NCBI RefSeq assembly: GCF_014879975.1
Contig: NZ_CP062500.1
Coordinates: 1,426,001 to 1,490,000, forward strand
Direction: 5' to 3'
From: Vibrio bathopelagicus
GTDB lineage: Bacteria; Pseudomonadota; Gammaproteobacteria; Enterobacterales; Vibrionaceae
Length of the DNA stretch: 64,000 nt
The notes under the pieces are model-generated. The model was not told where the DNA came from and did no database searches. It saw nothing but the letters and a program-made list of their open reading frames with translations. Numbering within the stretch: position 1 is the stretch's first letter; each line of letters begins with the position of its first letter. The position numbers and the translations under genes were made by a program. Below are positions 30,344 to 50,123 of the stretch, one piece after another.

Positions 30344-31216
30344 ATGAAACGCTTAATTTTAAACGTCACAATCTTGGTATTTATGGTTCTTGGTAGCATT
30401 AGTGCCATGGCTCATGATTCAACGGTTAAGTACGGTATTGCGATATCTCATGATGGTGAGCAAATTGCGTATGGCAAAAGTGGGAGTGGGGATACGACGC
30501 TGATCTTCATTCACGGTTGGAGCTTAGACAGCAGGCTTTGGCAAAACCAAGTGAGTGAGTTTTCAAAACAGTATCAAGTGATCACTATGGGCTTAGCAGG
30601 GCACGGTAACTCGTCGTTCAACCGCGAAGAGTACACCATGGTTGCGTTCGCAAAAGACGTGAAAGCAGTAATCGACAAAGAGCAACTCGAATCCGTCATC
30701 TTAGTCGGACATTCCATGGCGGGTGGCGTTATTGCAGAAGCCGCAAAACTGATGCCGAAAAGAGTGAAAGGCATTATTGGTGTCGACACATCGCAAAACG
30801 TCGCACTAGCGGTTTCACAAAACGACCTAGATGCAATGACCAAACCGTTTGAAGCAGACTTCCAAGCGGGCATCACTATGTTCGTGAAAGATTCGCTACC
30901 AAAAGACGTAGACGCAGATTTACTTTACTGGGTAACGCAAGACATGGCATCAGCACCGCCAGCTATCGCGATAAACCAGTTCCGCCATTATCTAGGGCAA
31001 TACGTGACAGGCGAAGCTCACCGCGTGTATGAGAACGTGAATGTGCCAGTAATATTGGTTAACGCTCGCCTATGGCCCACGGATTCAGAAGCGAACAAGA
31101 AACACATCAAGGACTACAGTATTTTCTACATTGAAAACTCAGGCCACTTCCCAATGCTAGAACAACCTGAGCAGTTCAACGCAACGTTGAAGAAAGCGGT
31201 GAAGTCAGTGAAGTAG
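30344..31216 (+). CDS. secreted alpha/beta hydrolase, parent of the downstream 3'-tail array
   Basis: A 290-residue protein with a signal peptide (cleavage near SAMA-HD, about residue 23), so it is periplasmic or secreted. The alpha/beta-hydrolase fold has oxyanion FIHGWS (55-60), nucleophile elbow GHSMAGG (Ser124) and catalytic His268 in SGHFPMLEQP; Asp247 is a candidate acid. Esterase or other hydrolase chemistry is likely, substrate unknown. It is intact and ends AVKSVK-stop, followed by terminator T1. Diverged copies of its 3' end recur seven times downstream. Confidence 0.88.
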   Translation: MKRLILNVTILVFMVLGSISAMAHDSTVKYGIAISHDGEQIAYGKSGSGDTTLIFIHGWSLDSRLWQNQVSEFSKQYQVITMGLAGHGNSSFNREEYTMVAFAKDVKAVIDKEQLESVILVGHSMAGGVIAEAAKLMPKRVKGIIGVDTSQNVALAVSQNDLDAMTKPFEADFQAGITMFVKDSLPKDVDADLLYWVTQDMASAPPAIAINQFRHYLGQYVTGEAHRVYENVNVPVILVNARLWPTDSEANKKHIKDYSIFYIENSGHFPMLEQPEQFNATLKKAVKSVK

Positions 31217-31246
31217 GGCGGTTGTAATCATCCTATAGATAAAACT

Positions 31247-31273
31247 AAGGCCTCGCGTGTGCGAGGCCTTTTT
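31247..31273 (+). terminator. hydrolase terminator T1
   Basis: AAGGCCTCGC, GTGT, GCGAGGCCTT, then TTT. It is preceded by ATAGATAAAACT, the stretch shared by the array terminators. Confidence 0.92.
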
Positions 31274-31358
31274 GTTCTAGATGGTGCGCTCATGCCGATT
31301 AGTTCAGCAACGATTAAAAGGCATTGCTCTAAACTTTTCGACCTTGTTAAAATGTATT

Positions 31359-32042
31359 CTACCTGATCTTAAGGAATACTCTTTTTTCTTCATCAGATAG
31401 TTTTTGTGCCCAAAAGCAGAATTTCCTTAACCTAGTCAATGCTCGGTGTTTTCCAGAATTGCTTAATATCCATGGCACAAAAAACAAAGAAGCGTAAACG
31501 ACGAAAAATAGCCCTATAGCCATAAATGTCTCATTGGACTCCCAAAATAGTGATATTAGTGATGCTGCTAAAAAGGACGCAAATATTATGAACCAAGGGT
31601 TTGTAACTATTGGTGATTGTGAATAACTTTCGATTTCGGTATTACAATATTCTAGAGTGCTATTAAAATCACAATTTTTTGTTGTTTTTGATTTAATCGC
31701 CCCTTCATAGAATAAAACGAATTGTAAATATTCGTTATTTTTACTAAAAAATGAGAGCTCATGCTGGAAAATGTTCGAGTAACGCTCAAATGCTTTTTGT
31801 CGGCATATGTTGTATTGTTTGATCATTTTGAAGCACATGATCAAAGAGAAAGACAGTGACAACGTTGACTGAAACATTCCCTCTGCGAAATACTTGAGAC
31901 CAATTGCTCCGAATGTAAAGAGTAAGAACTGACATATCAACACAATCAGATCACCGATATTATTATTTACAACTATCGTCCTAAATACTTTCCATACATC
32001 TGCGTCATTACAAAGTTTGTAATGTTCCAAAAATACTTTCAC
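31359..32042 (-). CDS. hypothetical four-helix membrane protein
   Basis: A 227-residue protein starting at GTG behind GGGAG. Two hydrophobic helices at about 29-48 and 55-75, a polar region of about 70 residues, two more helices at about 147-165 and 170-192, then a basic C-terminal tail. The layout (two TM pairs round a cytoplasmic segment) recalls SLATT-type predicted effector proteins, but no family signature is certain. It is AT-richer than its surroundings and forms cargo 1 of the array, between the intact hydrolase and tail remnant 1. Confidence 0.65.
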   Translation of the reverse strand: MKVFLEHYKLCNDADVWKVFRTIVVNNNIGDLIVLICQFLLFTFGAIGLKYFAEGMFQSTLSLSFSLIMCFKMIKQYNICRQKAFERYSNIFQHELSFFSKNNEYLQFVLFYEGAIKSKTTKNCDFNSTLEYCNTEIESYSQSPIVTNPWFIIFASFLAASLISLFWESNETFMAIGLFFVVYASLFFVPWILSNSGKHRALTRLRKFCFWAQKLSDEEKRVFLKIR

Positions 32043-32225
32043 TCACTGCTCCCGAAGACGCGCTAGTTTTTTTTACTAGGATTATAGGATAATTTCCTTT
32101 TAAAACATGAGATTAACGTTATTGGTCAAAGTTGTATATATCTTTTAGGTTACTAAACATTAAAACACTAATTTAGGTAAAGGATGCGTCAGGTTTGCGG
32201 GATGCTTCCCCATAGTTTTTAAAAC

Positions 32226-32606
32226 TCGCTACCAAAAGGTGTAGACGCGAATTTACTTTACTGGGTAACGCAAGATATGGCATCAGCACCGCCAGCTATC
32301 GCGATAAACCAGTTCCGCCATTATCTAGGGCAATACGTGACAGGCGAAGCCCACAGAGTATATGAGAACGTGAACGTGCCAGTAATATTGGTCAACGCTC
32401 GTCTATGGCCAACGGATTCAGAAGCGAACAAAAAGCACATTAAGGATTGCAGCATTTACTACATTGAAGACTCAGGCCACTTCCCAATGCTCGAGCAACC
32501 TGAGCAGTTCAACACAACGTTGATGAAAGTGGTTAAGTCAGTGAGGTAGGGCGCTGTGGTTGTTAAATGATGGCTGCAACTGTTGATATAAAAACCAAGG
32601 CCTCGC
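32226..32606 (+). pseudogene. hydrolase 3'-tail remnant 1 with half a terminator
   Basis: About 325 nt match the last third of the hydrolase gene. From 32277 it encodes 90 residues, of which I count 83 identical to the parent, ending VVKSVR-stop at 32549. The catalytic-His motif GHFPMLEQPEQFN is kept. The following AAAACCAAGGCCTCGCG is the left arm of the shared terminator, but the sequence then changes to TTTTTTAAG, so the right arm is lost. There is no nucleophile and no start, so it is not a functional gene. Confidence 0.88.
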
Positions 32607-32652
32607 GTTTTTTAAGTTAAATCGATGGAGCCTATCAATCTGATAGAGTCCA

Positions 32653-32835: not shown

Positions 32836-33093
32836 TTAATCCATTGATTTCATCATTTTATCTATATTAAGCCCACCAAGATCCTCGAGGTTGTTCTTAA
32901 TCTCTTCATCGATTGATAGCTGGCGTTCCACTTGCTTTATTTCCTTCTCAAGAAACTTTTCAACTTCTTGAGATACGTTGAACATTAAGCCTTGTTCACG
33001 CGCTGCTTTTCTCGCTCGTTTAAGACGAACATCTAAGTCTGATGAGATTTTGATGTTCAGTGATACTTTGGATTGTTTTTTCTGTAATGACAT
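32836..33093 (-). CDS. ribbon-helix-helix-like small protein
   Basis: An 85-residue protein from the ATG at 33093. Residues about 8-45 read as a beta strand then two helices (KVSLNIKISSDLDVRLKRAR, then VSQEVEKFLEKEI), the pattern of MetJ/Arc-type DNA-binding proteins such as antitoxins and partition factors. The C-terminal helix is acidic. It is close to the 40-residue gene downstream on the same strand; no classical toxin gene is present, so an antitoxin role is unproven. Confidence 0.65.
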   Translation of the reverse strand: MSLQKKQSKVSLNIKISSDLDVRLKRARKAAREQGLMFNVSQEVEKFLEKEIKQVERQLSIDEEIKNNLEDLGGLNIDKMMKSMD

Positions 33094-33163
33094 ATCGATT
33101 CTCAACTTTATCTAAAAAATACTATAAACTTTTCTACCCTTTTAGCAAGAAATTTCGACGTTG

Positions 33164-33375
33164 ACGGATTCAGGATCGAACAAGAAACACATCAAGGATT
33201 ACAGTATTTACTACATTGAAGACTCCGGGCATTTCCCAATGCTAGAGCAACCTGAGCAGTTCAACACAAGGTTGATGAAAGCGGTGAAGTCAGTGAAGTA
33301 GGGTGCTGTAGTCATTAAAGGATAGTTGTAATTGTTGATAGAAAAACTAAGGCCTCGCGTGTACGAGGCCTTTTT
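33164..33375 (+). pseudogene. hydrolase 3'-tail remnant 2 with terminator T3
   Basis: From ACGGATTCAG the sequence follows the parent 3' end to the stop at 33301, in frame (reads IKDYSIYYIEDSGHFPM, then ends MKAVKSVK-stop). By eye about one base in ten differs from the parent. The complete terminator AAGGCCTCGC-GTGT-ACGAGGCCTTTTT is at 33349-33375. Confidence 0.88.
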
Positions 33376-33563
33376 GTCTTAGTTAGAAATCCAGATGTAA
33401 CTTGGAATTGAGCAATTTGAGCTAGTTATTCTGATTTTCTAGATCAGATACGACAAGCAGTAGAAGTAAAATAATGTTTGGCGTGAAATGGTAAGTATTT
33501 GCCGATAGGAAATTTAAGCTTTAGTCGATCCTAAATTACCCATCCAAATGGTTGATATTCATT

Positions 33564-33932
33564 ATGAGAAAGTTTTTTAAATATGCTATGACATTGTTTA
33601 TTTGCGTGAGCCTATTCGTTTTTGGTTATGTCTATGGGCATAAACAAGCAGAGAAGTTGGTTCCCCAATACTCTGGTATTTTTAAGAAAATGAACGGGGA
33701 TGAAGTTCAATGGGAAGCGCCTGCCGAAGCAACGTTGAGATGGCGTTCTGGGCAGTACGAGATTCGATACAAAGCTCCTGATGGAGACAGCGCATACACT
33801 GCAATTGATCCAAGCTTTGGAGATATGTGCGGAGTCATGTTAGGCATGTCTGAAAAACTAGTGTGCTGGAACGACAACTCTAATCACAAAATTCAAAACT
33901 TCAGCTTTGAAGGTATAGAGGTTATGCAGTGA
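33564..33932 (+). CDS. hypothetical membrane-anchored or secreted protein
   Basis: A 122-residue protein from MRKFFKYAM, with one hydrophobic helix (about 5-25, containing FGYVYG) and a polar, Trp-rich rest including one Cys pair (DMCGVMLG and LVCWND). Probably periplasmic and anchored by its N-terminus. The ribosome binding site is weak. It is cargo 3 of the array, with the secreted protein at 34127. No family recognised. Confidence 0.6.
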   Translation: MRKFFKYAMTLFICVSLFVFGYVYGHKQAEKLVPQYSGIFKKMNGDEVQWEAPAEATLRWRSGQYEIRYKAPDGDSAYTAIDPSFGDMCGVMLGMSEKLVCWNDNSNHKIQNFSFEGIEVMQ

Positions 33933-34126
33933 CAGGAATAGTCAACGCAAGCAACCAATTGTGACTGATCCAACTGGTGTCAGGAAAATAAGAGCTTTAA
34001 TTGAGGCTTTAGAACATTAGCTAGAACATTTGGCGGCGCAAGCTAATTATGAAAATGCTTTTGTTTAATTACATAGTTATCGCTGGTAATTACTGCCCTA
34101 ATTTACTGATTACAGGAACAAATAAA

Positions 34127-34504
34127 ATGAAAAAATTGATTACCTTAGCGACTCTAGTAGCTGCATCGCTCACGGCTCAAGCGGGAACATTCATTTACCA
34201 GTCAGAGGAGACAGGCAAGGGCTACGAGCTGCCTGTTGAATGTGCGGATGAATCGTACGAATACGCCCCGAATGGTAATTTGATTTGTGATGAGACGAGC
34301 TATTTCCCTACAACGCGCATCAACCCGTCAGACATGACACCACCGCCACCAATGGAGACGGCAGAGCCTGAGGGGGATGGTTGGGGATTCCCTTTACTGA
34401 GCACTGTAGGCAAAGTGATCATCTTCCTAGACCCCAAGCCGCCTGCTGATGCCTACATAGAATGCGAAAGCCAAGGCAACACACAACAATGCACAGTTTA
34501 CTAG
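34127..34504 (+). CDS. small secreted hypothetical protein
   Basis: A 125-residue protein. MKKLITLATLVAASLTAQA is a clean signal peptide behind AGGA; the ATG at 34049 is rejected. The mature part holds four Cys (about residues 36, 54, 117, 122), probably disulfides, and a PPPPME stretch. No known domain. Confidence 0.65.
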   Translation: MKKLITLATLVAASLTAQAGTFIYQSEETGKGYELPVECADESYEYAPNGNLICDETSYFPTTRINPSDMTPPPPMETAEPEGDGWGFPLLSTVGKVIIFLDPKPPADAYIECESQGNTQQCTVY

Positions 34505-34556
34505 CATGACACCGCAGCAAGCGTTCGCAGTTTGTGAAGACCTGATCACGGTTTAC

Positions 34557-34660
34557 TAGAGCAGTTCAACACATTGTAGATTAAAGGTTTTAAGTCAATG
34601 AAGTAGTGCGGTTGCAATCGTTGATAGAAAAACCAAGGCCTCGCGGTGCGAGGCCTTTTT
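34557..34660 (+). pseudogene. hydrolase 3'-tail remnant 3 with terminator T4
   Basis: GAGCAGTTCAACACA to AAGTCAATGAAGTAG follows the last 50 nt of the parent, with an early in-frame break. The parent-like 3' flank GTGCGGTTGCAATCGTTGATAG and the terminator (34635-34660, with a shortened loop) follow. Confidence 0.82.
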
Positions 34661-34698
34661 GTTTGTGTTAATGATGTACCTGACTTGGAGAGTATTAG

Positions 34699-35079
34699 CT
34701 ACTCTATGTAGATCGCTATTCCATTCACCGTCTGTTCTGAAACAGGGATTAAGTACTGGTAGTCTGTGCCAACGCCTCCCAATACTACAGAGTTGTTGCT
34801 TCCTGTCGCTTGAAGTAAGACACCATTAGCTCCTAGTTTAGCCGCCTGCTTTTTTAACTTTTCGATTGCATAGTCGATGGATCCTTGTTTAGTCACACCA
34901 GTATCACTAGATGCATCAACTAAAGCTATTTTTTCATAGGTCTCAGGCGCTTCAAGATAAAGCCTAACCTCTTGAGGTGTAATTGGGTCTCTGGCTTCAC
35001 CGACTAATATTGCTGAACCAGATGCACAGCCAACTAAAAATAGCGTGATAAAAAGAGCTAAGGTTTTAAAGATATTCAT
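34699..35079 (-). CDS. hypothetical lipoprotein
   Basis: A 126-residue protein from MNIFKTLALF; the lipobox LVGC-A (Cys near residue 18) predicts a lipid-anchored protein. The mature part has VRLYLEAPETYEKIALVDASS and AAKLGANGVLLQATG, a pattern seen in small periplasmic lipoproteins with a two-layer alpha-beta domain. An earlier ATG at 35133 would precede the signal and is less likely. Role unknown. Confidence 0.7.
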   Translation of the reverse strand: MNIFKTLALFITLFLVGCASGSAILVGEARDPITPQEVRLYLEAPETYEKIALVDASSDTGVTKQGSIDYAIEKLKKQAAKLGANGVLLQATGSNNSVVLGGVGTDYQYLIPVSEQTVNGIAIYIE

Positions 35080-35242
35080 TGGTATTAGGTCTGTTTCTGG
35101 AATTAGGCGCGGAGTATAGCGAAATAAGACCATCCTTTAATTATGGGTATTGTAACAAGTTGCGTTATTGCTTGTGAATCAGATGCATATGAGACTTGAC
35201 CGACAATCCCCTCATAGCCTCCCCTTGGTTTACATCTCCAAT

Positions 35243-35269
35243 CTCTTGTTGGTAACGGGAAAGGGGAGG
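35243..35269. repeat. 27-bp direct repeat, copy 1
   Basis: CTCTTGTTGGTAACGGGAAA followed by GGGGAGG. The other copy at 37305-37331 differs by one base. The pair flanks the GST and MFS genes. Here CCTCCCCTT at 35218 can pair with AAGGGGAGG, so this copy may also fold as a terminator. Confidence 0.75.
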
Positions 35270-35310
35270 GGTGATATTAGACTCGTTCAACACAACACTG
35301 TTCAAAGTGA

Positions 35311-35943
35311 TTAAGCATTTTTGTATTCGCAATAGCTAAGTTTTTTTGCAAGTGACTCTAGGCTAAACGTTGCCAATGTGTCTTTGAAAGGCGAACTGTG
35401 TAAGGCAGTGGTGAGGATGTCGTGCTCCTCTGCTGAAAGCAAACTAGCGTGCCTGAATAGAACGTAATCTAATGCTATGTGCAGGTACAATGTTGAGAAG
35501 TCAGGCTGAAGAATGTCATGATTGTTATTCAACTGCCCGACAAGCGCTTTAACGCTTCTTTGAATTCCTTTCTTTCCTCTAATCGTTAGCACGTTTTGCT
35601 CAGCTTCGAAGCGGCTTAGTGCTGCGCACCGAAATGCCACTTCCATTAGCGTTTTACTCAGTCCCAATAACGACATGCGTTGAGTGTCGCTAGCCTTGGT
35701 CGCTGCTAGTTTTTCAGTTGGGTAAGCTTGCATGAGAAACTCGCAGATCGTTAAGCTCTCGGTGAGTGCAACCTCATCACTGGTTTCTAGAACCGGAATG
35801 GTACTGAATGGATTGATTGTGACCAATGTGTTGGGTGTTTGCCATGGGTCGATCCATTCAAGAACTATTGGAGCATCACACAGATAGGCCGTGGCTAACA
35901 CTGCTCTGGAGAATGGAGAGGTGTCGTTTAAATACAATTTCAT
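35311..35943 (-). CDS. glutathione S-transferase-like protein
   Basis: A 210-residue protein with the thioredoxin-like N-terminal domain of GSTs (MKLYLNDTSPFSRAV, with INPFSTIPVLE and ALTESLTICEFL supplying the cis-Pro and Glu-Ser glutathione contacts, about 45-70) and a helical C-terminal domain. Cytoplasmic. It lies 14 nt after the MFS gene on the same strand, so the two are an operon. Substrate unknown. Confidence 0.8.
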   Translation of the reverse strand: MKLYLNDTSPFSRAVLATAYLCDAPIVLEWIDPWQTPNTLVTINPFSTIPVLETSDEVALTESLTICEFLMQAYPTEKLAATKASDTQRMSLLGLSKTLMEVAFRCAALSRFEAEQNVLTIRGKKGIQRSVKALVGQLNNNHDILQPDFSTLYLHIALDYVLFRHASLLSAEEHDILTTALHSSPFKDTLATFSLESLAKKLSYCEYKNA

Positions 35944-35957
35944 GAGCGATTCCTTTG

Positions 35958-37160
35958 CTAAGAATTTATTTGAGCAGTGTTTAATGTCTGTTGTTTGGTT
36001 GTTGTAAACGCAATGCAGAATACCGACAAAATGAGTGCACTCGCGCTGATCATAAATAAGAGGTTATAACTGGTGAGTTGCGGGGCGTAATTAGCCATAA
36101 CGAAGCCGACTATTCCTTGCGATATCGCAAAAGCCATTGTCATTGCTCCCCAAGATTTCGTATGGAGCTGTGTCCCAACGATCTCTAAGGTATAAGTTGA
36201 GACCAGTGTTACGGTGCCAGGAGTAAACATACCGACCAACAAAGATGAAGCAAAAAGTGCTATTTCACTGGTGCTTAATAGCGGAAGAGCAACCCCTACA
36301 GCTTTACAAATAAACGCAGCTAATAGTGCTTTTTTAAGTCCAAATTTATCACCTAGTATACCGGTTACTATTGGCCCAATCGCTGCCCCTATGCCAAAGA
36401 CAGCCCAATAAAAACCGTCACTCGCAAAACTCATTTCTAGCTCTCGAACAATATAGTCGACCCAAAAGAGAGTGTGGGGTAAATAACCGATGGCGCTAAA
36501 GCTATAGGCTAAAAGTACGCAGCTAATACTGATGCGCTCATTCTTAGATAAGGCATTAAACGTCGATGGGCTTTTATCGCAATGGTTTGGCTTGACCTCA
36601 AGAGACCATGTGTTCCACGTCAGGACGGTTGCGAGGAAAGCGATCGCTCCCATACCTAACCATGCACTTTCAACACTTTGGTAGATTAGCAAAGGTATGA
36701 TGGTTCCTGAAATCATGGCGCCGAGACCAATGCCTGAAAATACGACGCCACTGATTCTTGCTTTCATCTCTTGAGGGTGAAGGCTGGTGATCACGGGTGG
36801 TGCGAGTACCATAAGTACGGCTCCCGATACACCCGCAATGGTTCTAAGCGTTAAAAACCATTCAAAGGGCGCAGACTTTAAAGCACAGCCAAGATAACTA
36901 AAGCTACTTAACAATAGAGAGGCGCGTATGAGTGTGCCTGTTGAATAATACCTTTGTAAAAAGCTCGAAGCAGGAGCCCCGAAGATATAGCCAATCAGTG
37001 TCGCAGCCCCAAGTATGGAGGCATCTTCGCTTGAGAACCACCCACTTTGAATGAGCACTGGCATTAAAGCTATATAAGCAAATCGCCCAATGCCGTTTCC
37101 AACTAATGTTGCTGCGAGCCCTGCGAAGGTGTTGCGATTCAATAGTTTTACGTGCTGCAT
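35958..37160 (-). CDS. MFS transporter, YbfB/YjiJ type
   Basis: A 400-residue protein with about 12 hydrophobic helices. The start region (GNGIGRFAYIALMPVL) and the GAATLIGYIFGAP loop fit the YbfB/YjiJ branch of the major facilitator superfamily. It is the first gene of a two-gene operon with the GST-like gene. The operon is bracketed by a 27-bp direct repeat. Confidence 0.82.
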   Translation of the reverse strand: MQHVKLLNRNTFAGLAATLVGNGIGRFAYIALMPVLIQSGWFSSEDASILGAATLIGYIFGAPASSFLQRYYSTGTLIRASLLLSSFSYLGCALKSAPFEWFLTLRTIAGVSGAVLMVLAPPVITSLHPQEMKARISGVVFSGIGLGAMISGTIIPLLIYQSVESAWLGMGAIAFLATVLTWNTWSLEVKPNHCDKSPSTFNALSKNERISISCVLLAYSFSAIGYLPHTLFWVDYIVRELEMSFASDGFYWAVFGIGAAIGPIVTGILGDKFGLKKALLAAFICKAVGVALPLLSTSEIALFASSLLVGMFTPGTVTLVSTYTLEIVGTQLHTKSWGAMTMAFAISQGIVGFVMANYAPQLTSYNLLFMISASALILSVFCIAFTTTKQQTLNTAQINS

Positions 37161-37639
37161 GTCACGTACCCTTAATATGTATCTGTAACATTACGCTAAC
37201 ATTTAAAGCTGAACTTTCTCAACTGAGTTTTTGCTCTACTTTGTAGGGTTTGATGACAGGTCAGATTCTTTGTAAGTGTTAGATTGGTCACTTACATTTT
37301 CAAGCTCTTGTTGGTAATGGGAAAGGGGAGGAACTGAATCCGGATCGTGACAAGTACAGCTCTATATTCAGCGACAAATAATAATCTCCAATGAATTTCT
37401 CAAAGAAGTAAAAGCTCTCTGAATACTTACCAATCTCAAGAAATAACATTCTAAAAATGATCGTGTAACAACCTGTTAACTGGTTGTATTGTCGCTGTGT
37501 TATCTGTCTTAGTTGCATATCGTTACCAAGCTCAGAACATATCATTACTTTTGAGGATTTGAATATGAACAGAAAACTAATAACGGCTTTATTCATGCGC
37601 GATCATATTCAAGGTTTTCTTTTAGAATCGGCGACTTAA
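37161..37639. other. intergenic region between two MFS genes
   Basis: About 480 nt between divergent transporter genes. It holds the second 27-bp repeat (37305-37331). An open frame on the minus strand (37300-37596) has no ribosome binding site or family and is not called. No other structure seen. Confidence 0.5.
37305..37331. repeat. 27-bp direct repeat, copy 2
   Basis: CTCTTGTTGGTAATGGGAAA followed by GGGGAGG, one base different from the copy at 35243. Same orientation, about 2.06 kb apart. Confidence 0.75.
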
Positions 37640-38830: not shown

Positions 38831-38856
38831 TAAGTTACAGAAATAATAGCGACTCT

Positions 38857-42271: not shown

Positions 42272-42367
42272 AAATGATTCAGTAACTTGAAATGGGCAAA
42301 TCAGTATTACGGCTACAGGGTTTTACCCAAAGATTTGAAAGAACTAATGAATTAAAGGATTAGTACG

Positions 42368-43240
42368 ATGGCAAAAACGATCTCATTGGTACTTGGTAGT
42401 GGTGGCGCTAGAGGCTTAGTTCACGTTGGCGTTATCCGCTGGCTGATTGAACATGGCTATCAGATAAAATCCATCTCTGGCTGTTCAATTGGCGCACTTA
42501 TCGGTGGTGTTTACGCGGCAGGTAAGCTAGATGAATTTGAAGAGTGGGTCACCAGTATCGATCAATCGGATATGGCTATGATGTTGGACTTTTCATGGCA
42601 ATCGAGTGGTATGTTTAAGGGCGATAAGATCATCGACACACTGCGTGGATTAATCGGCGAGATTTCAATTGAAGATCTGCCTATCCCTTATACCGCAGTT
42701 GCCGCTAACGTCGCCGATGAAAAAGAGGTTTGGCTGCAATCAGGTTCTCTGTTCGATGCCATTCGCGCCTCTATCTCTTTGCCACTATTCTTCACACCTC
42801 ATGTCATCAATGGCGAAGAGCTGATTGATGGCGGAGTACTTAATCCCGTACCGATTGCGCCTACCTTTGGGGACAATACTGACTTTACGTTGGCTGTGAA
42901 CTTAGGTGGTGAACCTGAAATGGTACAACAAGAGGTGCCCCCTGTTTCTTTACCAGCGAAAGAGGGCAACTTACACGACAAGGTCGTCCACTTTATCGAT
43001 AATCTAGGTAGCAGTGTAAAAAGCAAAATGAGTTTTAACTTTGCAGCTTACGACATTGCCAACCAAGCGTTTGATGCGATGCAATCGACTATTGCTCGCC
43101 AGAAATTGGCCGCTTATCCTGCCGACATTACGCTTGAGATCCCACGCAATGCCTGCGGCACCTTAGAGTTTGAACGCTCACAAGAGATGATAGATAGAGG
43201 CTACCATTTAGCACAGGCTAAACTCGGCAACCGGCTTTAA
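42368..43240 (+). CDS. patatin-like phospholipase, RssA type
   Basis: A 290-residue protein with the patatin oxyanion loop GSGGARGLVHVG (about 10-21), nucleophile motif GCSIG (Ser near 41) and DGG (Asp near 156), the intact Ser-Asp dyad. Size and motif order fit the small RssA/YchK group of cytoplasmic patatins, which hydrolyse acyl esters. It starts behind AAAGGATTAGTACG and is followed 1 nt later by the pseudopilin-like gene. Confidence 0.87.
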   Translation: MAKTISLVLGSGGARGLVHVGVIRWLIEHGYQIKSISGCSIGALIGGVYAAGKLDEFEEWVTSIDQSDMAMMLDFSWQSSGMFKGDKIIDTLRGLIGEISIEDLPIPYTAVAANVADEKEVWLQSGSLFDAIRASISLPLFFTPHVINGEELIDGGVLNPVPIAPTFGDNTDFTLAVNLGGEPEMVQQEVPPVSLPAKEGNLHDKVVHFIDNLGSSVKSKMSFNFAAYDIANQAFDAMQSTIARQKLAAYPADITLEIPRNACGTLEFERSQEMIDRGYHLAQAKLGNRL

Positions 43241-43241
43241 G

Positions 43242-43886
43242 ATGAGAGACAGAAAAGACATGTTGAAATTGTTGCGCCAGATGAAAAAGTGGAAACTTGC
43301 GTCGCTTAGCTTGATCATTCTCGTTGCCACTTTCTTTATCTATCATCAGTTCGGTAACAGCATGTCCCGTGCCGATGAGGCAAAATTTCTAATCGGGCAA
43401 CTTAATACTGTCTTGGATGCTGCTGAGCAATATTCTCATGATAATGGTTCTTTGCCCCCAATTACTTCCGATACCGACACTAAATTCGGCTACTTAAATA
43501 TCAATCAATTAATCGAGAATCCGGGCGTATCAACATGGCGAGGACCATATCTAGCTTTTGACGATACATGGATTGGTGGTGATCAGTATATTGACCACCC
43601 AGACTACATAGCAACGCAATTACTGCTTAAGGAAAAGGGGAGTCAGTGGGTACGAGGAAGCTCAGAAACCGGCTGTAATGCGTCGTCACCAGCATGCTCT
43701 CTTGCGGCTTGTATTTGGTTGGTGCCAACAAAAGTCGCACAAGAGATTAATCAGATTGTGGACGGAGATACGAGTATAGAAAGCTCGGATGCGACAGGAA
43801 AAATACGTTACGACAACACTTTTGGTGGCGCTCTTGTATGTATGATTGGAGATGATTTCCCAATGCCTTCGACACAGCCAAATTAA
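43242..43886 (+). CDS. pseudopilin-like inner-membrane protein
   Basis: A 214-residue protein. A basic N-terminus, then one hydrophobic helix (about 18-36), a coiled stretch LIGQLNTVLDAAEQYSHDNGSLP and a compact domain with four Cys. This spacing resembles type II secretion or type IV pseudopilins after the helix, but the prepilin cleavage motif (G-F-T-L-x-E) is missing, so processing is not expected. It starts 1 nt after the patatin stop. Confidence 0.6.
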   Translation: MRDRKDMLKLLRQMKKWKLASLSLIILVATFFIYHQFGNSMSRADEAKFLIGQLNTVLDAAEQYSHDNGSLPPITSDTDTKFGYLNINQLIENPGVSTWRGPYLAFDDTWIGGDQYIDHPDYIATQLLLKEKGSQWVRGSSETGCNASSPACSLAACIWLVPTKVAQEINQIVDGDTSIESSDATGKIRYDNTFGGALVCMIGDDFPMPSTQPN

Positions 43887-43900
43887 GTCGTTTCTTATTA

Positions 43901-43985
43901 CTCACTGGCCGCTTCGTTTTTGTTTTTACCTGACCGAAGGCGAAGCCGGACTCGATAGACGCAATATTGGGAAACGAGTTGTTCT
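43901..43985 (-). pseudogene. 3' tail of an Lrp/AsnC gene (remnant)
   Basis: On the minus strand it encodes FPNIASIESGFAFGQVKTK then TKRPVS. It matches the last 24 codons of the intact Lrp-type gene at 47611, mostly with silent base changes, so it comes from a diverged allele. The similarity runs upstream for about another 15 nt. No start or DNA-binding domain is present. Confidence 0.85.
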
Positions 43986-43997: not shown

Positions 43998-44023
43998 AAG
44001 GCCTCGCGTGTGCGAGGCCTTTT
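43998..44023. terminator. array terminator T6
   Basis: AAGGCCTCGC-GTGT-GCGAGGCCTT, then TT. The upstream TGTAGATAAAATT is the same stretch as before T1, but no hydrolase tail precedes it; the Lrp tail does. Confidence 0.88.
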
Positions 44024-44111: not shown

Positions 44112-45119
44112 TTACCAGATATCTTCAATTAAAGAGTCTTTGAGCTGCTCTGCTGCTGCAATGTTTTCTTTCGACATATATTGCTTAACGTCAATTATCT
44201 CTTTCTCTGCATCCGAGTTTCCGTATTCCTGCGCGACTTCAAACCATGCTAGCGCTTTAACAAAATCGCTCCATGTACCGTGACCATTACGGTAGGCGTA
44301 ACCAACGGAATACTGACCATAATCGTTGCCCTGCATAGCGGCGCTAGTGTAATACTCTAATGCTTTTTTTGCGTCTGTAGTTTTGAAACCACAAGGCTTT
44401 TTGTACCGAGTAGAAGAGTAAATATCACCCATCTTTACATAAGAAAGTGTATGTTCATCTTCTTCAATGGCGTTGCTAAATAATTGCATCGCTTTAGAAC
44501 AACTCTTTTCAACGCCTTGTCCATTTAGGTAAGAAATACCCAAGTTGTACATGGCACTTGCATCACCTAAGTTTGCTGATTGCTCAAACCAATAAGCAGA
44601 TTTAGTGAAGTCCTGAGCGACGCCTTGACCTTCATCGTATGAAAACGCGAGTTGATACATAGCGTCAGAATAACCCGCTTGCGCAGAAGCGAGGTAATAG
44701 TCGTTGCCTTTTTTAAGATCGACAGGTGACCCTTCGCCATCAAAATACATTACGCCTAATGAATAGAGCACATAGGGGTCTTTGCTCGGTTCCGCTTTAT
44801 GGTACCAAGCCAGTGCTTTGTCGTACTGTTCGTCGTAGTAATACTTATCTGCCAAGGTAATGATGGCTTTCACCTCACCAGATTCCGCGAGTTGATTCAT
44901 GTACTCATAACCGCGCTCTATGTTCTCTTCATACATTGAATCTTCAATCAAAAGGTTAGCAGCCTGCATCACCAATTCGTTATCACTAGAATTTTCTGCC
45001 GTCTTTAATAGAGTGAGCTCTTCGCCTTCAAAAACTTCAATCTCAAGATCGTATGCAAAAGCATTGGCTGACAACACCAACGACAGTGACGTTAAAAAAG
45101 CACAACTTTGTTTCATCAT
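44112..45119 (-). CDS. secreted Sel1-repeat protein
   Basis: A 335-residue protein with a signal peptide (ending near NAFA-YD, about residue 23). Residues about 80-320 contain six to seven Sel1-like repeats (A-x2-YxLGxMYxxGxGV type: YSLGVMYFDGEGSPVD, YQLAFSYDEGQGVAQD, YNLGISYLNGQGVEKS, YSVGYAYRNGHGTWSD). Sel1 solenoids mediate protein contacts. Periplasmic; no partner is evident. It is cargo between T6 and tail remnant 6. Confidence 0.85.
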   Translation of the reverse strand: MMKQSCAFLTSLSLVLSANAFAYDLEIEVFEGEELTLLKTAENSSDNELVMQAANLLIEDSMYEENIERGYEYMNQLAESGEVKAIITLADKYYYDEQYDKALAWYHKAEPSKDPYVLYSLGVMYFDGEGSPVDLKKGNDYYLASAQAGYSDAMYQLAFSYDEGQGVAQDFTKSAYWFEQSANLGDASAMYNLGISYLNGQGVEKSCSKAMQLFSNAIEEDEHTLSYVKMGDIYSSTRYKKPCGFKTTDAKKALEYYTSAAMQGNDYGQYSVGYAYRNGHGTWSDFVKALAWFEVAQEYGNSDAEKEIIDVKQYMSKENIAAAEQLKDSLIEDIW

Positions 45120-45227
45120 TTAAGCCATTTGTTATATTAATTAAGTTTCACATAAATATAACAAGATAACTTTGAAAATAAAGGAGTTTTAGGGATATCG
45201 GCCTCTGGGTTTACGACAATGAGACCT

Positions 45228-45359
45228 AGGGCATTTCCGAATGCTAGAGCAGCTAGAATAGTTAAACCAACCTCTGATGAAAGTGATTAAGCCAGTGAAG
45301 TAGTGTGGGGGAATTGTTAGACAGATAAAACTAAGTCTCCTCGTTTACGAGGTCTTTTT
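45228..45359 (+). pseudogene. hydrolase 3'-tail remnant 6 with terminator T7
   Basis: An ungapped match to the parent 3' end from AGGGCATTTCCGAATGCTAGAG to the stop region (CCAGTGAAGTAG), with an internal in-frame stop in place of EQF. About a quarter to a third of the bases differ by eye. The terminator AAGTCTCCTCG-TTTA-CGAGGTCTTTTT (45333-45359) is also decayed. Confidence 0.78.
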
Positions 45360-45421
45360 GTTATAGGTCGGAATATTAAGGGAGCTTAATTTAGTGGTTG
45401 AACCCTATGTGAGCTCCTTTA

Positions 45422-46321
45422 TTAATGGCAAGGGTCAACTCCGAGTAAGAAGTCGATGACACAACGTGTTCGTTTTGGAACTTGGTGCCGAGATGGATAG
45501 AGCAGAGACACGGTTAGTTCTGGTCCCTGCAGCTCCGGCATTATGGATACGAGTTGACCAGATTCAATTTCAGCATGCATGGAGCTTGGCAAAATTACTC
45601 CAATGCCCAGGCTGTAGAGGAGCATCTGCTGGATAATGTATGGAGAGTTACAAGCATAAAGCCTCTTGGGTTTGATTGTGACTCTGCTATCTTCGCTTAG
45701 ATAGAAGAGCTGAGAACCGTCATTACTAACCTGAGAGAGTGTGAGCCAATGGTGATTTTCTAATTCACTAATACTTTGTGGCTTGCCGTACTTTGTAATG
45801 TACTCGGTGCTCGCATAAATTCCCGCTCTCTCTCTGCGTAAGGTGCGAGTAACTAGAGAACTATTTTCACGAAAGCTAGTTCGAATTGCGAGATCAACGT
45901 CTTCGTTGATCAAGTTTGAGGTATTGTCGTTCAGAATGAGGTTAAGCATAATTTTTGGAAAGCGTTTCTTAAATTCTTCCAACTTTGGGAGTAAATAAGA
46001 TTGTGCAACATCGTTTGATAGCGACAAGGTCACTTTACCAGAAGGCTCCTTTGATGAGGCTATATCATTGACGCACTCGACGAGTGAAGGTAATGCTTTG
46101 GCCAGTTCATGAACCTTTACGCCTTCTTCTGTGAGAGATAGTTTTCTTGTTGAGCGTTGGATTAGCCGCACACCTAATATTTCTTCTAATTGAGCGACTT
46201 GCTCACTCACCCGAGAACGACTTGTATTCAAAGCCTTTGCTGCTTGAGCAAAGCTGCCTCTCTCGATTACTGTGGCAAATATGGCTAAGTGCTTCAATTT
46301 TGAATGGTCAATTGTACTCAA
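45422..46321 (-). CDS. LysR family transcriptional regulator
   Basis: A 299-residue protein with the LysR winged helix at the N-terminus (GSFAQAAKALNTSRSRVSEQVAQLEEILGVRLIQRSTR, about 22-60) and a substrate-binding-like effector domain (about 90-295). It is divergent from the oxidoreductase gene with about 105 nt between start codons, which suggests that it controls it; the inducer is unknown. Confidence 0.88.
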   Translation of the reverse strand: MSTIDHSKLKHLAIFATVIERGSFAQAAKALNTSRSRVSEQVAQLEEILGVRLIQRSTRKLSLTEEGVKVHELAKALPSLVECVNDIASSKEPSGKVTLSLSNDVAQSYLLPKLEEFKKRFPKIMLNLILNDNTSNLINEDVDLAIRTSFRENSSLVTRTLRRERAGIYASTEYITKYGKPQSISELENHHWLTLSQVSNDGSQLFYLSEDSRVTIKPKRLYACNSPYIIQQMLLYSLGIGVILPSSMHAEIESGQLVSIMPELQGPELTVSLLYPSRHQVPKRTRCVIDFLLGVDPCH

Positions 46322-46425
46322 AATCAGAACTCCTCATTCTAAAAGTAACGTCTACTGGGTTGTTTTAACTTTACCTAATATGGTCATCGAAAGAAAACTA
46401 TCAGTAGAAAAAGAGGAAAATTACT

Positions 46426-47361
46426 ATGAAAGCAGCTCGTATACACACTTATGGTGGCGCTGAAGTACTAACCATCGATGATGTAGAAAAGCCAACCATT
46501 ACTGACGAAGAAGTGTTGGTAAAAGTGATCGCTAGTTCGATTAATCCATTAGATTGGCTACTTCGTTCTGGCGAGCTGAAGGACCTAATTCCAGTGTCAT
46601 TCCCTCACACACTAGGTTGGGATTTTTCGGGAATCATTGAAAAAGTAGGATCCAAGGTAACAAAATATGCGGTGGGGGATGCCATCTATTCACGGCCAGA
46701 GGTTTCTAGGCACGGTTCTCATGCTGAATATATTGCGGTTCCTGCTGTTGATATTGCAATCAAGCCTAGAACTGTCTCGTTTGCTTCTGCAGCGTCACTT
46801 CCTATTGCATCCATTACGGCGTGGCAGGCATTGTTTGAAAAAGGGGAGCTAAAAAAAGGACAACGTATATTAATTCATGGTGGTGCTGGTAGCCTTGGTG
46901 CTATCGCGGTTCAACTAGCAAAAGCCCAAGGAGCCTACGTGATTACGACTGCAGCAGAGAATGATCACGAGTTTGTCAGGTCTTTAGGAGCAGATGAAGT
47001 GATTGATTTTCGAAAAGTGCGTTTTCAAGATGTGGTAAGCGATGTGGATGTAGTGCTTGATACGATTGGTCGTCAGGTACAGGTGGATTCTTACGCGGTG
47101 TTAAAACACAAGGGGATTCTTGTAGCTGTAAATACCTACCCAGACTTGGAGCTTGCCAAATCATACGGTGTTGAAGCGCGATTTTTGTCCATTAAACCTA
47201 ATGGTAGTCATTTGAAAAAAGTCGCGGAGTGGGTCGACAATGGTCGACTGCGTCCCATTGTTGGGCACGAATATTCGTTTGAGGACATTGCTCAAGCTTA
47301 CAGCTTAAGTGAAAGTGGAGCAGCTAAAGGGAAAATCGTTCTGCATGTGTCAACTCCTTGA
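46426..47361 (+). CDS. zinc-independent quinone oxidoreductase/alcohol dehydrogenase family (NADP-dependent)
   Basis: A 311-residue MDR-superfamily enzyme. The GroES-like N-terminal domain (about 1-120) has no catalytic zinc Cys/His set, and the Rossmann NADPH motif is GGAGSLGAIAVQLA (about 145-158). It lacks the structural-zinc lobe, as in quinone reductases. It starts behind GAGGAAAATTAC. The divergent LysR gene is a likely regulator. Confidence 0.87.
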   Translation: MKAARIHTYGGAEVLTIDDVEKPTITDEEVLVKVIASSINPLDWLLRSGELKDLIPVSFPHTLGWDFSGIIEKVGSKVTKYAVGDAIYSRPEVSRHGSHAEYIAVPAVDIAIKPRTVSFASAASLPIASITAWQALFEKGELKKGQRILIHGGAGSLGAIAVQLAKAQGAYVITTAAENDHEFVRSLGADEVIDFRKVRFQDVVSDVDVVLDTIGRQVQVDSYAVLKHKGILVAVNTYPDLELAKSYGVEARFLSIKPNGSHLKKVAEWVDNGRLRPIVGHEYSFEDIAQAYSLSESGAAKGKIVLHVSTP

Positions 47362-47487: not shown

Positions 47488-47513
47488 AAGGCCTCTCGTT
47501 TACGAGGCCTTTT
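47488..47513. terminator. array terminator T8
   Basis: AAGGCCTCTCGT-TT-ACGAGGCCTT then TT, preceded by ACGATACAACT. It resembles T7 in having CTCGTTTACGAGG. No recognisable hydrolase tail precedes it. Confidence 0.85.
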
Positions 47514-47610: not shown

Positions 47611-48072
47611 TTACCTCACTGGCAGCTTAGTTTTTGTTTTTACCTGACCGAAGGCGAAGCTAGATTCAATAGAAGCAATATTGGGCAGGCGGGTTAATTG
47701 TTTACGGATAAACTGCTCGTAGCTTTTGAGCGATTCACTGACCACATGCAGCAAATAGTCGTGATTGCCTGTCATCAAAAAGCACTCTAATACTTCATCA
47801 ATCACTTCAATGTGCTGCTCAAAGTCTCGCATGTTTTCTTCTGTTGGCTTTTCGAGCTTCACCAACACAAACACATTAACCGGCAGTCCACACGCCTCTT
47901 GGTCTACACTGGCGTGATAGCCACGAATAATCCCTTGCTTCTCTAATGCTCGAACTCGGCGTAAACAAGGAGAGGGCGATAGTGCCACGCGATCAGCCAA
48001 CTCTTGATTAGTAAGCCGAGCGTTGCTTTGCAGTTCAGCCAGTATTCTTTTATCGATCTCATCCATTGGCAT
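47611..48072 (-). CDS. Lrp/AsnC family transcriptional regulator
   Basis: A 153-residue protein with an AsnC-type helix-turn-helix (DEIDKRILAELQSNARL, then NQELADRVALSPSPCLRRV, about 4-41) and a RAM ligand-binding domain (about 65-145, with CFLMTGNHDYLLHV). It is divergent from the PLP-enzyme gene; amino-acid-responsive control of it is likely. A diverged copy of its last 25 codons lies at 43901. Confidence 0.9.
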   Translation of the reverse strand: MPMDEIDKRILAELQSNARLTNQELADRVALSPSPCLRRVRALEKQGIIRGYHASVDQEACGLPVNVFVLVKLEKPTEENMRDFEQHIEVIDEVLECFLMTGNHDYLLHVVSESLKSYEQFIRKQLTRLPNIASIESSFAFGQVKTKTKLPVR

Positions 48073-48208
48073 ATTCCATCAATATTTAATTCCATTTGGC
48101 AATATTATTGCTCAAAGTGTATGTCTTACTTCGCAAATAGCAATTTTTAACATCTGCGCAAAACTAAAATTAAAGGAGGAACAACAAGCATGGAATGACT
48201 TAGGAATT

Positions 48209-50020
48209 ATGAATACTTCAACTCAACTTAGCCCGCTGCGTAAAACCACCAAGCACGAACAAGCAGAAGCTCTTGCCATTGAGCAGGCAAAACACTTTGG
48301 TATCGACCCAAATAGTGATTACGGCGTCACGCTGATTGAACTGGCGACGACCCTGTACAAAGCTAATACCAAGACACACGATCTTTGGGCATTGACGGTT
48401 GATGGCTTATCAGATCTCGACAAGAGTGACCGGATCGCTTGGTTTAACGCTAAACGTTTTTTGTCATTCCAGATCGCTAAGATCCTCGATAACCTGCAAA
48501 ACCCAATGCGCGCCACTTACCAATCTATTGCTACCAATAATGGCAATTTTGCTTCAAAAGGTGCGTATCCTATCTTCGATAATGTTGCTGCTATCTTCTC
48601 GGCAAGCCCAGTGATTACGCGCACCGCGACCTATTTGTTTGCGTGTACTGAATGGATTGAAGACGCGTTCAACGGTAAAGAGCCGCTACACGATATCTAT
48701 TCTCGACTTCTCAACCCAACATCGATTTCACTGGCGAACCACATGGTTGACATTGAGGCGGGCTCCAGAGCTAACGAGTACCTCGCATGGAACTTTAACT
48801 CCGGTATGGCGGCTATTGATGGGTTGTTGAGTCATTTGCTCGGGCATGAAGACATTGTCTTGGCCTCACGCAATATCTACGGCGGTTCTTATCAGCTGTT
48901 GGAAGATTGGTTTGGCAAGCCTTCGAATCTAAATGTTGCGGTAGAGTGGGTCGATGGTTACTCAGGAGATGAGTTTGCGGCTCGCCTTGATGAGGTTGCT
49001 GAAAAATACGCAGATCGCCTCGCCGCGGGTAAGAAGATCTATGTCTACCTAGAGTCACCGTGTAACCCGCACGGGTACGTGTTAGATGTAGCCAACATCA
49101 GTAAAGCTGGTCACCTTCGAGGTTGGGACGTAATTGTCGACTCAACAGTGGGTACACCATTGTTGCACCCAGTACTAAAACGCGATGATGTGATGGAAAG
49201 ACCAGATTATGTCATTCACTCCTACACCAAAGAACTAGCGGGTTCAGGTACCACAACCGCTGGGGTAGTCATCGGACGCAACGAGACCATGTTTGTTCCA
49301 AAAGGAGAAGAGGTCACCTGTACCAAACCCAACGGCGATGAGGTCACTATTCCATGGAACGAAACGCTGTTTTGGAATGTGTATTACATCAAAGGCGCAT
49401 TCTTAGATGCAGACAAAGCGTTCGAAGTGCTCAATGGTATGAAAACGTATGAGATGCGCGTGGTGCAGAAAACCATTAATACTCTGACTCTGGCGAAGAT
49501 TTTTGATGCTCACCCTGACATCAACGTATCGTGTCCTGCTTTGCCAGATAGCGATAACTATGAACATTGTCAGAACAACATGTATTTGGGATTGCCAGCG
49601 GCATTATTTACTATCGATATGGAAGGTAACGGCGATCGTGCGCCAATCAATCGTGATGGGTTCAAACAGTTCTTCGATATGCTTGAGCCAGCAATCGGCA
49701 TGCAAGTGAGCCTGGGGCAAACTAATACGGTGGCGCTGTGTCCGGCACTGACAACGCATTCAGAACTAAGCGATGAGGCACTCAATGAAGCAGGGATCAA
49801 ACCGACCACAATGCGTATCTCTATTGGCTTGGAAGATCCGCGAATGTTCATCGCTCATATTATCGAGGCGGCCAAATTGTCGATTGACCGTAAACACGCC
49901 GATTTCTCATCGAGCTTCCCTAGTGGTGACAGTATCGATCAAATCTATATGCAAACCTATATGGATGTACACCAGAGGTTTGTGAAGAGCTTGCCGAAGT
50001 TCAGTCAGCTTACTCAATAA
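48209..50020 (+). CDS. Cys/Met-metabolism PLP-dependent enzyme (long form)
   Basis: A 604-residue protein starting at MNTSTQ behind TAGGAA; upstream starts lie in the divergent regulator's start. Residues about 185-600 hold the gamma-family PLP fold, with SGMAAIDGLLSHLL, DSTVGTPLL and HSYTKELAGSGTT; Lys341 is the predicted PLP lysine. It belongs to the Cys/Met metabolism (PF01053-type) enzymes (cystathionine gamma-synthase or methionine gamma-lyase group), but it is about 200 residues longer, with an extra N-terminal helical domain. The divergent Lrp-type regulator suggests amino-acid control. The reaction cannot be named. Confidence 0.8.
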   Translation: MNTSTQLSPLRKTTKHEQAEALAIEQAKHFGIDPNSDYGVTLIELATTLYKANTKTHDLWALTVDGLSDLDKSDRIAWFNAKRFLSFQIAKILDNLQNPMRATYQSIATNNGNFASKGAYPIFDNVAAIFSASPVITRTATYLFACTEWIEDAFNGKEPLHDIYSRLLNPTSISLANHMVDIEAGSRANEYLAWNFNSGMAAIDGLLSHLLGHEDIVLASRNIYGGSYQLLEDWFGKPSNLNVAVEWVDGYSGDEFAARLDEVAEKYADRLAAGKKIYVYLESPCNPHGYVLDVANISKAGHLRGWDVIVDSTVGTPLLHPVLKRDDVMERPDYVIHSYTKELAGSGTTTAGVVIGRNETMFVPKGEEVTCTKPNGDEVTIPWNETLFWNVYYIKGAFLDADKAFEVLNGMKTYEMRVVQKTINTLTLAKIFDAHPDINVSCPALPDSDNYEHCQNNMYLGLPAALFTIDMEGNGDRAPINRDGFKQFFDMLEPAIGMQVSLGQTNTVALCPALTTHSELSDEALNEAGIKPTTMRISIGLEDPRMFIAHIIEAAKLSIDRKHADFSSSFPSGDSIDQIYMQTYMDVHQRFVKSLPKFSQLTQ

Positions 50021-50031
50021 CTTTCGTCAAT

Positions 50032-50123
50032 AAGCCAAGTCAGTGACGTAGGGAGCTGTAATCGTTAGAGAATAGCTGCACCGCTAGATAGAAAACTAAG
50101 GCCTCGCATGTGCGAGGCCTTTT
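50032..50123 (+). pseudogene. hydrolase 3'-tail remnant 7 with terminator T9
   Basis: AAGCCAAGTCAGTGACGTAGGG matches the last codons and stop region of the parent (AAGTCAGTGAAGTAGGG). The 3' flank follows (GCTGTAATCGTTAGAG, CTAGATAGAAAACT), then AAGGCCTCGC-ATGT-GCGAGGCCTTTT at 50098-50123. This is the last array unit I can see. Confidence 0.78.

What the first reader, a model, noticed from the sequence alone, without database searches (positions are those of the whole stretch)
30344..50123. An array of seven diverged 3' tails of one alpha/beta-hydrolase gene separates unrelated cargo genes
Sites at 32226, 33164, 34557, 38857, 39618, 45228 and 50032 carry the last part of the hydrolase gene at 30344, all on the same strand. 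Five of them lead into a complete AAGGCCTCGC-loop-GCGAGGCCTT terminator and one into a half terminator. Remnants 1, 2, 4 and 5 are still in frame for GHFPMLEQP-type sequence, with silent and conservative changes. Tails start at different points, so no single crossover site is used. Cargo between them differs in function and orientation. This looks like repeated insertion at the gene's 3' end, each new piece bringing or leaving a hydrolase tail. No integrase, transposase or attC site is in the region, so the mechanism is open.
Basis: partly seen in the sequence, partly recalled or inferred. Interest (0 to 1): 0.85.

Follow-up and report, generated by a model that had tools for sequence, protein, structure and literature searches.

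The report
Displaced gene tails mark insertion history
In a group of marine Vibrio bacteria, new DNA seems to be added again and again beside the end of one gene with no dedicated insertion enzyme in sight, and additions leave a scrap of the old gene end behind, so the locus keeps a readable record of how the surroundings of an anti-phage defence hotspot grew.

Summary
The intact hydrolase gene (HYD, 30344-31216) is followed by seven diverged copies of its 3' end; five lead into a complete terminator (one degenerate), one into a half. Of 30 regions compared (window plus 29 genus genomes), 25 carry tails, with differing cargo. HYD ends one side of a pheT-HYD slot that is occupied in all 25 regions measured and holds almost entirely different, often anti-phage genes (Hachiman here). 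Tails are not local duplicates: own HYD is best match of 1 of 38. Tails farther from HYD are more diverged. A tail's coding end is linked to the cargo on its left, its terminator to the cargo on its right, so joins lie inside the tail. pheT leaves 3' tails in 4 of 30 regions and AsnC one in the window, so the process is not hydrolase-specific. No tyrosine recombinase was found in the window. Best reading: repeated recombinase-free insertion anchored on homology at a gene's 3' end, as proposed for T6SS 'sequential displacement', then homologous exchange and deletion at tails. A new variant of a known kind, bearing on how core defence hotspots are built. Strain-level and experimental proof are missing.

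The parts
22096..24483 (+). pheT, left anchor of the defence slot
   Evidence: Pfam tRNA_synthFbeta, B3_4, B5, FDX-ACB; its 3' end leaves displaced tails in the slot of 4 of 30 regions, not in the window
24509..24532 (+). pheT terminator of the same stem-loop type
24991..25512 (-). 173-aa ORF in the defence slot, no PADLOC match
25475..26677 (-). GmrSD_N-domain protein, weak PADLOC NsnA match
26866..28959 (-). HamB (Hachiman defence helicase)
   Evidence: PADLOC HamB2 E 2.1e-243
28956..29879 (-). HamA (Hachiman defence)
   Evidence: PADLOC HamA2 E 2.1e-149, Pfam HamA
30344..31216 (+). HYD, intact alpha/beta hydrolase gene, anchor of the array
   Evidence: Pfam Abhydrolase_1/_6; 29 further genus genomes match over at least residues 1-257 at more than 520 bits
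31247..31270 (+). HYD terminator stem-loop
31359..32042 (-). 227-aa ORF, newest cargo by position, no clustered homologue in the other 29 regions
32221..32651 (+). tail 1 (HYD nt 545 on), half terminator at 32597
32836..33105 (-). 89-aa ORF (my cluster c20), in 13 of 30 regions and in several contexts
33164..33383 (+). tail 2 (HYD nt 736 on) and complete terminator
33552..34504 (+). two small ORFs (126 and 151 aa), unique among the 30 regions
34555..34670 (+). tail 3 (HYD nt 822 on) and terminator
34699..38830 (.). cargo block: c41, GST, YbfB-type MFS, c42, MFS
38855..38959 (+). tail 4 (HYD nt 760-867), no terminator
39114..39368 (-). 84-aa ORF cargo (c78)
39621..39762 (+). tail 5 (HYD nt 799 on) and terminator
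39830..43886 (.). conserved block DUF3360, c1, patatin, c34 (DUF3360 in 24 of 30 regions, patatin in 25)
43901..43971 (-). displaced 3' tail of the AsnC gene (71 nt, 90%)
   Evidence: (D9)
43998..44021 (+). array-type terminator
44112..45119 (-). Sel1-repeat protein cargo
45208..45372 (+). tail 6 (HYD nt 777 on) and degenerate terminator
45422..47361 (.). LysR regulator and zinc alcohol dehydrogenase, unique to this genome among the 30 regions
47488..47511 (+). array-type terminator with weak tail match
47611..50020 (.). conserved AsnC regulator and Cys/Met PLP enzyme (23 and 22 of 30 regions)
50034..50141 (+). tail 7 (HYD nt 856 on) and terminator

Best explanation
The array is a scar record of repeated recombinase-free insertions anchored on homology at a gene's 3' end. 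Incoming DNA from a related Vibrio carries its own HYD (or HYD 3' end) plus new cargo. It pairs with the resident HYD, and the far end joins inside the resident HYD's last third or in a tail already present. The new HYD end and cargo move in, HYD usually stays whole, and the old 3' end with its terminator is pushed downstream as a tail beside the old neighbour. Repetition yields an array with the youngest tails nearest HYD. Existing tails and terminators then serve as short homologies for exchange, and cargo is also lost by deletion. On the other side, pheT and HYD bound a slot that is swapped as a whole and often holds anti-phage genes; pheT shows the same tail scars. Shown: different cargo joined at tails, tails are foreign alleles, distance-divergence trend, linkage switch inside the tail, displaced old 3' end in a with/without pair, pheT and AsnC tails. 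Inferred: uptake by natural transformation (TfoX- and ComEC-type genes are present), and joining by homology-facilitated illegitimate recombination plus ordinary homologous recombination.
For: Tails in 25 of 30 regions, 70 in all. Own HYD best match of 1 of 38 tails of 70 nt or more. Distance from HYD against identity to own HYD: 51 tails, rho -0.49, p 2e-4. Linkage, 77 tails: coding end (nt 820-873) linked to left cargo (10 of 5000 permutations reach it), not to right cargo (3686 of 5000); UTR linked to both (25 and 4 of 5000); terminator linked to right cargo (0 of 5000), not to left (1086 of 5000). 30 HYD ends: coding part not linked to the following cargo (5366 of 10000), UTR (4 of 10000) and terminator (0 of 10000) linked. 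G192 versus G120: the long type of 3'UTR and the terminator loop of G192's HYD are in G120's tail beside c13, while G120's HYD has a short UTR and another loop. pheT tails in G015, G202, G203, G216 at E 1.5e-81 to 4.5e-46. HYD 5' heads upstream of HYD in G180, G040, G045. No Phage_integrase in the window. TfoX_N and Competence families present in this genome. Precedent model: PMC5361080, passages.
Against: Donor and event were never seen; one genome per species. Per-tail test on 19 tails: UTR plus terminator closer to other genomes' HYD ends abutting the same cargo in 14 (p 0.064), and 6 of the 19 share a replaced UTR that makes the match easy; terminator alone 18 of 19, coding part 7 of 19. 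103 of 274 distinct indels have neither end at a repeat. One apparent insertion (LysR-ADH in the window against G062) looks like a deletion in G062. The HYD frame is broken in 4 of the 30 regions (G015, G017, G205, G179), and several genomes have lost HYD, so it is not always restored. Order is mostly conserved. Five regions have no tail. Labels and tails shared by descent make points in the correlation and permutations not independent. Terminator-only joints share about 45 bp, little for homologous recombination.
Confidence: 0.75

Rival explanations
1. Integrase-bearing islands that target the 3' end of HYD and restore it, stacked in tandem; the integrases have been lost.
For: Some islands do target gene 3' ends (trmE islands: PMC8409611, start of abstract seen in the listing). 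Tails lie on one strand downstream of an intact gene. A start near nt 736 recurs in three left-flank types, although types 5 and 17 share the flank at the joint and so look like one inherited joint.
Against: Tail starts range from nt 545 to 859 over 25 left-flank types (an upper count of independent joints). No Phage_integrase in the window. Coding ends stay with the left cargo while terminators follow the right neighbour. pheT and AsnC show the same scars.
Confidence: 0.06
2. Local tandem duplication of the HYD 3' end followed by decay, with cargo inserted later.
For: All window tails are on the same strand, and tails decay with distance.
Against: Own HYD is best match for 1 of 38 tails; tails 1 and 2 of the window match HYDs of other genomes at 92.7 and 94.3% against 91.3 and 91.4% for its own; cargo differs between genomes at the same joint.
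Confidence: 0.05
3. Tails are old and vertically inherited; present variety is mostly deletion between tails in a long ancestral array, with HYD alleles swapped independently.
For: Order of shared cargo mostly conserved (96 of 1395 pairs conflict); 260 of 295 genes between HYD and the Cys/Met gene in 22 regions have a homologue in another region; one case reads better as a deletion.
Against: Cargo next to HYD is unique to one genome in several regions, and the same cassette (c20, GST-MFS4) sits in several contexts; G120's HYD end differs from the displaced one.
Confidence: 0.14

Closest known systems
Sequential displacement arrays of T6SS effector-immunity modules in V. cholerae (Kirchberger 2017, PMC5361080; passages read)
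   Same: Intact gene at the head, older pieces downstream, no recombinase known, alleles from other strains rather than duplicates, homology-facilitated illegitimate recombination proposed, likeness to integrons noted there.
   Different: Here the anchor is not a toxin and the displaced tail is no useful gene; cargo is unrelated in function (transporters, regulators, lux genes in G202); tails keep the terminator and mark the joints; genes on both sides of a defence slot do it.
Orphan 3' regions of Rhs loci (mentioned in PMC5361080; PMC3967940 seen only in the listing)
   Same: Strings of displaced 3' ends behind one complete gene.
   Different: From recall, displaced Rhs ends carry toxin and immunity; here the displaced ends are scraps between independent genes.
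Core defense hotspot 1 of Pseudomonas aeruginosa (PMC10250203; passages and section 17 read)
   Same: pheS/pheT among the left-flank genes, flanking genes conserved, very diverse anti-phage systems, no single mobile element.
   Different: Right anchor here is HYD, not the DUF4011 gene; no IHF/HU-family gene lies in this window; sizes here are 1.3-7.2 kb against a median of 26 kb there; here scars show how pieces joined.
Hotspots without mobile elements and with recombination at flanking core genes (Oliveira 2017, PMC5635113; passages read)
   Same: High turnover, no mobile-element signature, double homologous recombination at flanks proposed, commoner in transformable species.
   Different: That work infers it statistically; this locus keeps individual joints.
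Chromosomal integron of Vibrio (recalled; likeness also drawn in PMC5361080)
   Same: Cassettes in a row behind a fixed entry point, older ones further away.
   Different: No integrase in the window and no single recombination core.

Membership tests
Sequential-displacement array | Displaced pieces are alleles from outside, not local copies | tested here: met
   Own HYD best match in 1 of 38 tails
Sequential-displacement array | Older pieces lie farther from the intact gene | tested here: met
   51 tails, rho -0.49, p 2e-4; points not independent
Sequential-displacement array | Anchor is a toxin/effector gene and the retained part confers immunity | tested here: not met
   Anchor is an alpha/beta hydrolase; tails are short 3' scraps
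Core defense hotspot (cDHS) | Conserved flanking genes, occupied in every genome, diverse anti-phage genes | tested here: met
   pheT-HYD interval of 1.3-7.2 kb in all 25 regions measured; 3 of 74 genes there have a homologue in another region; PADLOC matches to HamA/HamB, GajA, Drt3b, Dsr1, ThsA among ten proteins chosen. HYD itself is not conserved genus-wide
Integron | Integron integrase next to the array | tested here: not met
   No Phage_integrase in the window
Integron | attC sites at cassette ends | not tested
   No attC model was run
Integrase island at a gene 3' end | One core site shared by all copies | tested here: not met
   Starts from nt 545 to 859 over 25 left-flank types; the recurrence near nt 736 is largely one shared joint
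Homology-facilitated illegitimate recombination | One homologous arm and one microhomology joint with donor sequence known | not testable with these tools
   Donor molecules are not known

The most novel reading that the evidence does not exclude
The locus works as a recombinase-free cassette system: the 3' end of HYD plus its terminator is a standing entry point, every displaced tail plus terminator becomes a further address, and cells of the clade trade, add and drop cargo cassettes by homologous recombination between these addresses, while the gene is mostly restored and terminators insulate the cassettes.
Probability: 0.3. Interest if true: 0.8.

Novelty: new variant of a known kind. Interest (0 to 1): 0.62.

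Why it matters
Defence hotspots without recognisable mobile elements are common, and how they are built is left open for the pheT-flanked hotspot of P. aeruginosa (PMC10250203). Here a pheT-flanked hotspot in another order of bacteria keeps scars of individual additions, with order, relative age and allele type readable. That makes recombinase-free growth testable by strain comparison and by transformation. It also extends displacement arrays from toxin loci to ordinary cargo, including lux genes in one genome.

Tried and rejected
Local duplication, integrase islands and integron membership were tested and rejected as above. Phage or plasmid carriage of HYD: in both collections every matching record is below 60% identity to it (74 phage, 1097 plasmid records). 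Structured RNA: no Rfam match at gathering score in 24000-56000. HYD outside the clade: six loci (L047-L051, L053; Photobacterium, Shewanella canadensis, Vibrio sp. Of7-15) have HYD without tails or a pheT end in the 14-21 kb fetched, so HYD does not make tails by itself. HYD's relatives in the PDB are general alpha/beta hydrolases and gave no clue to its role. A mini-unit of about 190 bp that travels with HYD nt 822 on was seen and not explained. Strain-level comparison was not possible with one genome per species. Literature: ten answered searches; among the titles and abstract starts listed (not all hits were listed) none describes this locus or hydrolase tails. Most subscription papers and all preprints are outside that library.
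Full report
What is there. HYD (30344-31216) is an intact alpha/beta hydrolase gene. Five lead into a complete stem-loop terminator (tail 6's is degenerate), one into half of one, one has none. The terminator sequence is nearly confined to this locus: 7 of 9 genome matches with up to two mismatches. In 1.264 Mb of this genome, window included (994 ORFs of 100 aa or more), no other gene has such a multi-copy array of decayed tails; the other multi-copy cases belong to one block of near-identical 3.1-kb repeats. Single 3' pieces were seen for AsnC (at 43901-43971) and for three genes elsewhere. The rest of the genome was not scanned for this.

The same locus in relatives. The genus search covered 227 genomes. 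I took regions of up to 40 kb of the 29 whose best HYD match exceeds 520 bits, plus the window (30 regions); three more distant full-length HYDs and genomes with fragments only were fetched apart (18 stretches). Map (c-numbers are my protein clusters): pheT, then genes that differ in nearly every genome, then HYD, then modules separated by tails and terminators, then a conserved end (AsnC, Cys/Met enzyme). pheT is seen upstream in 26 of 30; G179 and G204 are cut by contig ends, and G030 and G045 lack it within 12 kb. Tails reaching into the coding part occur in 25 of 30 regions, 70 in all, most (8) in the window. HYD's own frame is broken in 4 of 30 (G015, G017, G205, G179). Some genomes without HYD keep its 5' head, and some of these also tails, on the pheT side of the same locus: in G042 a head of 191 nt is fused to a tail, and its upstream terminator falls in the pheT flank group.

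Modules and joints. Among 212 repeat instances in 30+18 regions, the left edge of DUF3360 is reached through a tail or terminator from 12 kinds of left flank (29 instances). The left edge of c13 is reached from HYD itself (8) and from tails of five further kinds (21 instances, one of them an overlapping second hit). The left edge usually followed by c20 (9 of 12 instances) is reached from HYD (6) and from five kinds of tail. In G202 one module between a terminator and a tail holds lux genes: Pfam LuxC, Acyl_transf_2 (LuxD by recall), Bac_luciferase, LuxE, an NAD-binding oxidoreductase and DHBP synthase; one further ORF there spans two stretches and was not scanned.

Not local copies. For 38 tails with at least 70 nt of coding sequence, the genome's own HYD is best match once (ties counted for it); its median rank is 13 of 30. 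Age trend: mean identity to own HYD falls from 0.85 within 2.5 kb to 0.61 beyond 10 kb (51 tails, rho -0.49, p 2e-4).

Where the joints lie. If a tail were an untouched relic, all of it would share one history. Instead, among 77 tails (pairs from different genomes), the coding end (nt 820-873) follows the left cargo (10 of 5000 permutations) and not the right (3686 of 5000); the UTR follows both (25 and 4 of 5000); the terminator follows the right (0 of 5000) and not the left (1086 of 5000). Among 30 HYD ends the coding part does not depend on the next cargo (5366 of 10000), whereas UTR (4) and terminator (0) do. Less clean: a per-tail test gives 14 of 19 for UTR plus terminator (p 0.064), 18 of 19 for the terminator alone, 7 of 19 for the coding part, and 6 of the 19 share a replaced UTR. 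Direct example: G192 has HYD next to c13 with a long UTR and its own terminator loop; G120 has a 299-aa gene in between, its HYD has a short UTR and another loop, and the long UTR with G192's loop sits in the tail beside c13. Whole-locus indels: 274 distinct (564 pairwise), both ends within 25 bp of a repeat in 59, one end in 112, none in 103, where repeats cover 5.5% of sequence. One insertion-like difference in the window (LysR-ADH against G062) reads better as a deletion in G062. Tail starts range from nt 545 to 859 over 25 left-flank types; this is an upper count of independent joints, since for instance types 5 and 17 share the flank at nt 736.

Order. Of 1395 pairs of cargo clusters seen together in two or more genomes, 96 conflict in order, mostly through GST, MFS4, c1 (which may hold paralogues), c20 and c26. 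So most variety is presence or absence in a conserved order, with a few cassettes that moved.

The other side. The pheT-HYD interval is 1.3-7.2 kb in the 25 regions with a full pheT ORF, and none is empty; in G040 it is near 9.9 kb. Of 74 genes there, 3 have a clustered homologue in any other region; right of HYD, in 22 regions, 260 of 295 do. PADLOC and Pfam scans of 81 slot proteins list many defence families; how many of the 81 match any was not counted. Ten chosen proteins include HamA and HamB in the window and matches to GajA, Drt3b, Dsr1 and ThsA elsewhere. Cargo right of HYD is mostly ordinary: 13 PADLOC families over 110 representatives, led by viperin-type proteins (2), and many metabolic Pfam families. 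pheT itself has left 3' tails in the slot of G015, G202, G203 and G216, and pheT pieces lie beyond HYD remnants in G046 and G218. HYD heads lie in the slot of G180, G040 and G045.

Mechanism. No tyrosine recombinase was found in the window. TfoX- and ComEC-type genes exist in this genome, so uptake of DNA is plausible but not shown. The simplest account is insertion anchored on a homologous gene end with a loose second joint, followed by homologous recombination and deletion at tails. Kirchberger and colleagues proposed this kind of step for T6SS effector genes (passages), and a later paper invokes it for transfer between Vibrio species (PMC9711863, passages). The slot between pheT and HYD fits double recombination at flanking core genes as argued in PMC5635113 (passages). 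Which side of each event was the homologous arm cannot be told from these data.

Place in the literature. P. aeruginosa core defense hotspot 1 also has pheS/pheT among its left-flank genes, and its authors leave open how such hotspots are built and whether other clades have them. The present locus looks like such a case in Vibrio, with scars. I found no description of it in ten searches, of which I saw listings only.

Limits. One genome per species, unnamed for most; named relatives with tails include V. lentus, V. fortis, V. profundi, V. chagasii and V. splendidus. That the window is a Vibrio of their kind is inferred from these matches. Shared ancestry inflates counts of joints and permutation results. 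Gene calling was by longest ORF, and clusters are coarse.

Noticed in passing
L065:16150-16340 and matches in 26 of 30 genomes; window 35202-35269 and 37292-37389: A non-coding element of about 190 bp with two hairpins, often joined at its right end to HYD nt about 822, sits behind many different cargos in this locus; some genomes have further copies about 340-430 kb away.
   Followed up: partly
L059:16215-19684 and L060:774-3332: Lux genes sit between a terminator and a HYD tail in G202.
   Followed up: partly
window 43901-43971 and 47611-48072: The AsnC regulator gene on the minus strand has its own displaced 3' tail 3.6 kb away.
   Followed up: partly
G000:C1:1736844-1748261: Near-identical tandem repeats of about 3.1 kb, four copies, with a diverged fifth upstream.
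   Followed up: no
G000:C1:1535086-1536033, 2075882-2076469 and 2241400-2242971: Three further genes with one diverged copy of their 3' end within 12 kb; possible other sites of the same process.
   Followed up: no
L128 about 10021-10160 and L133 (head match): A HYD tail on another contig (C2) of G056 and a HYD head on another contig (C12) of G203, away from the locus.
   Followed up: no
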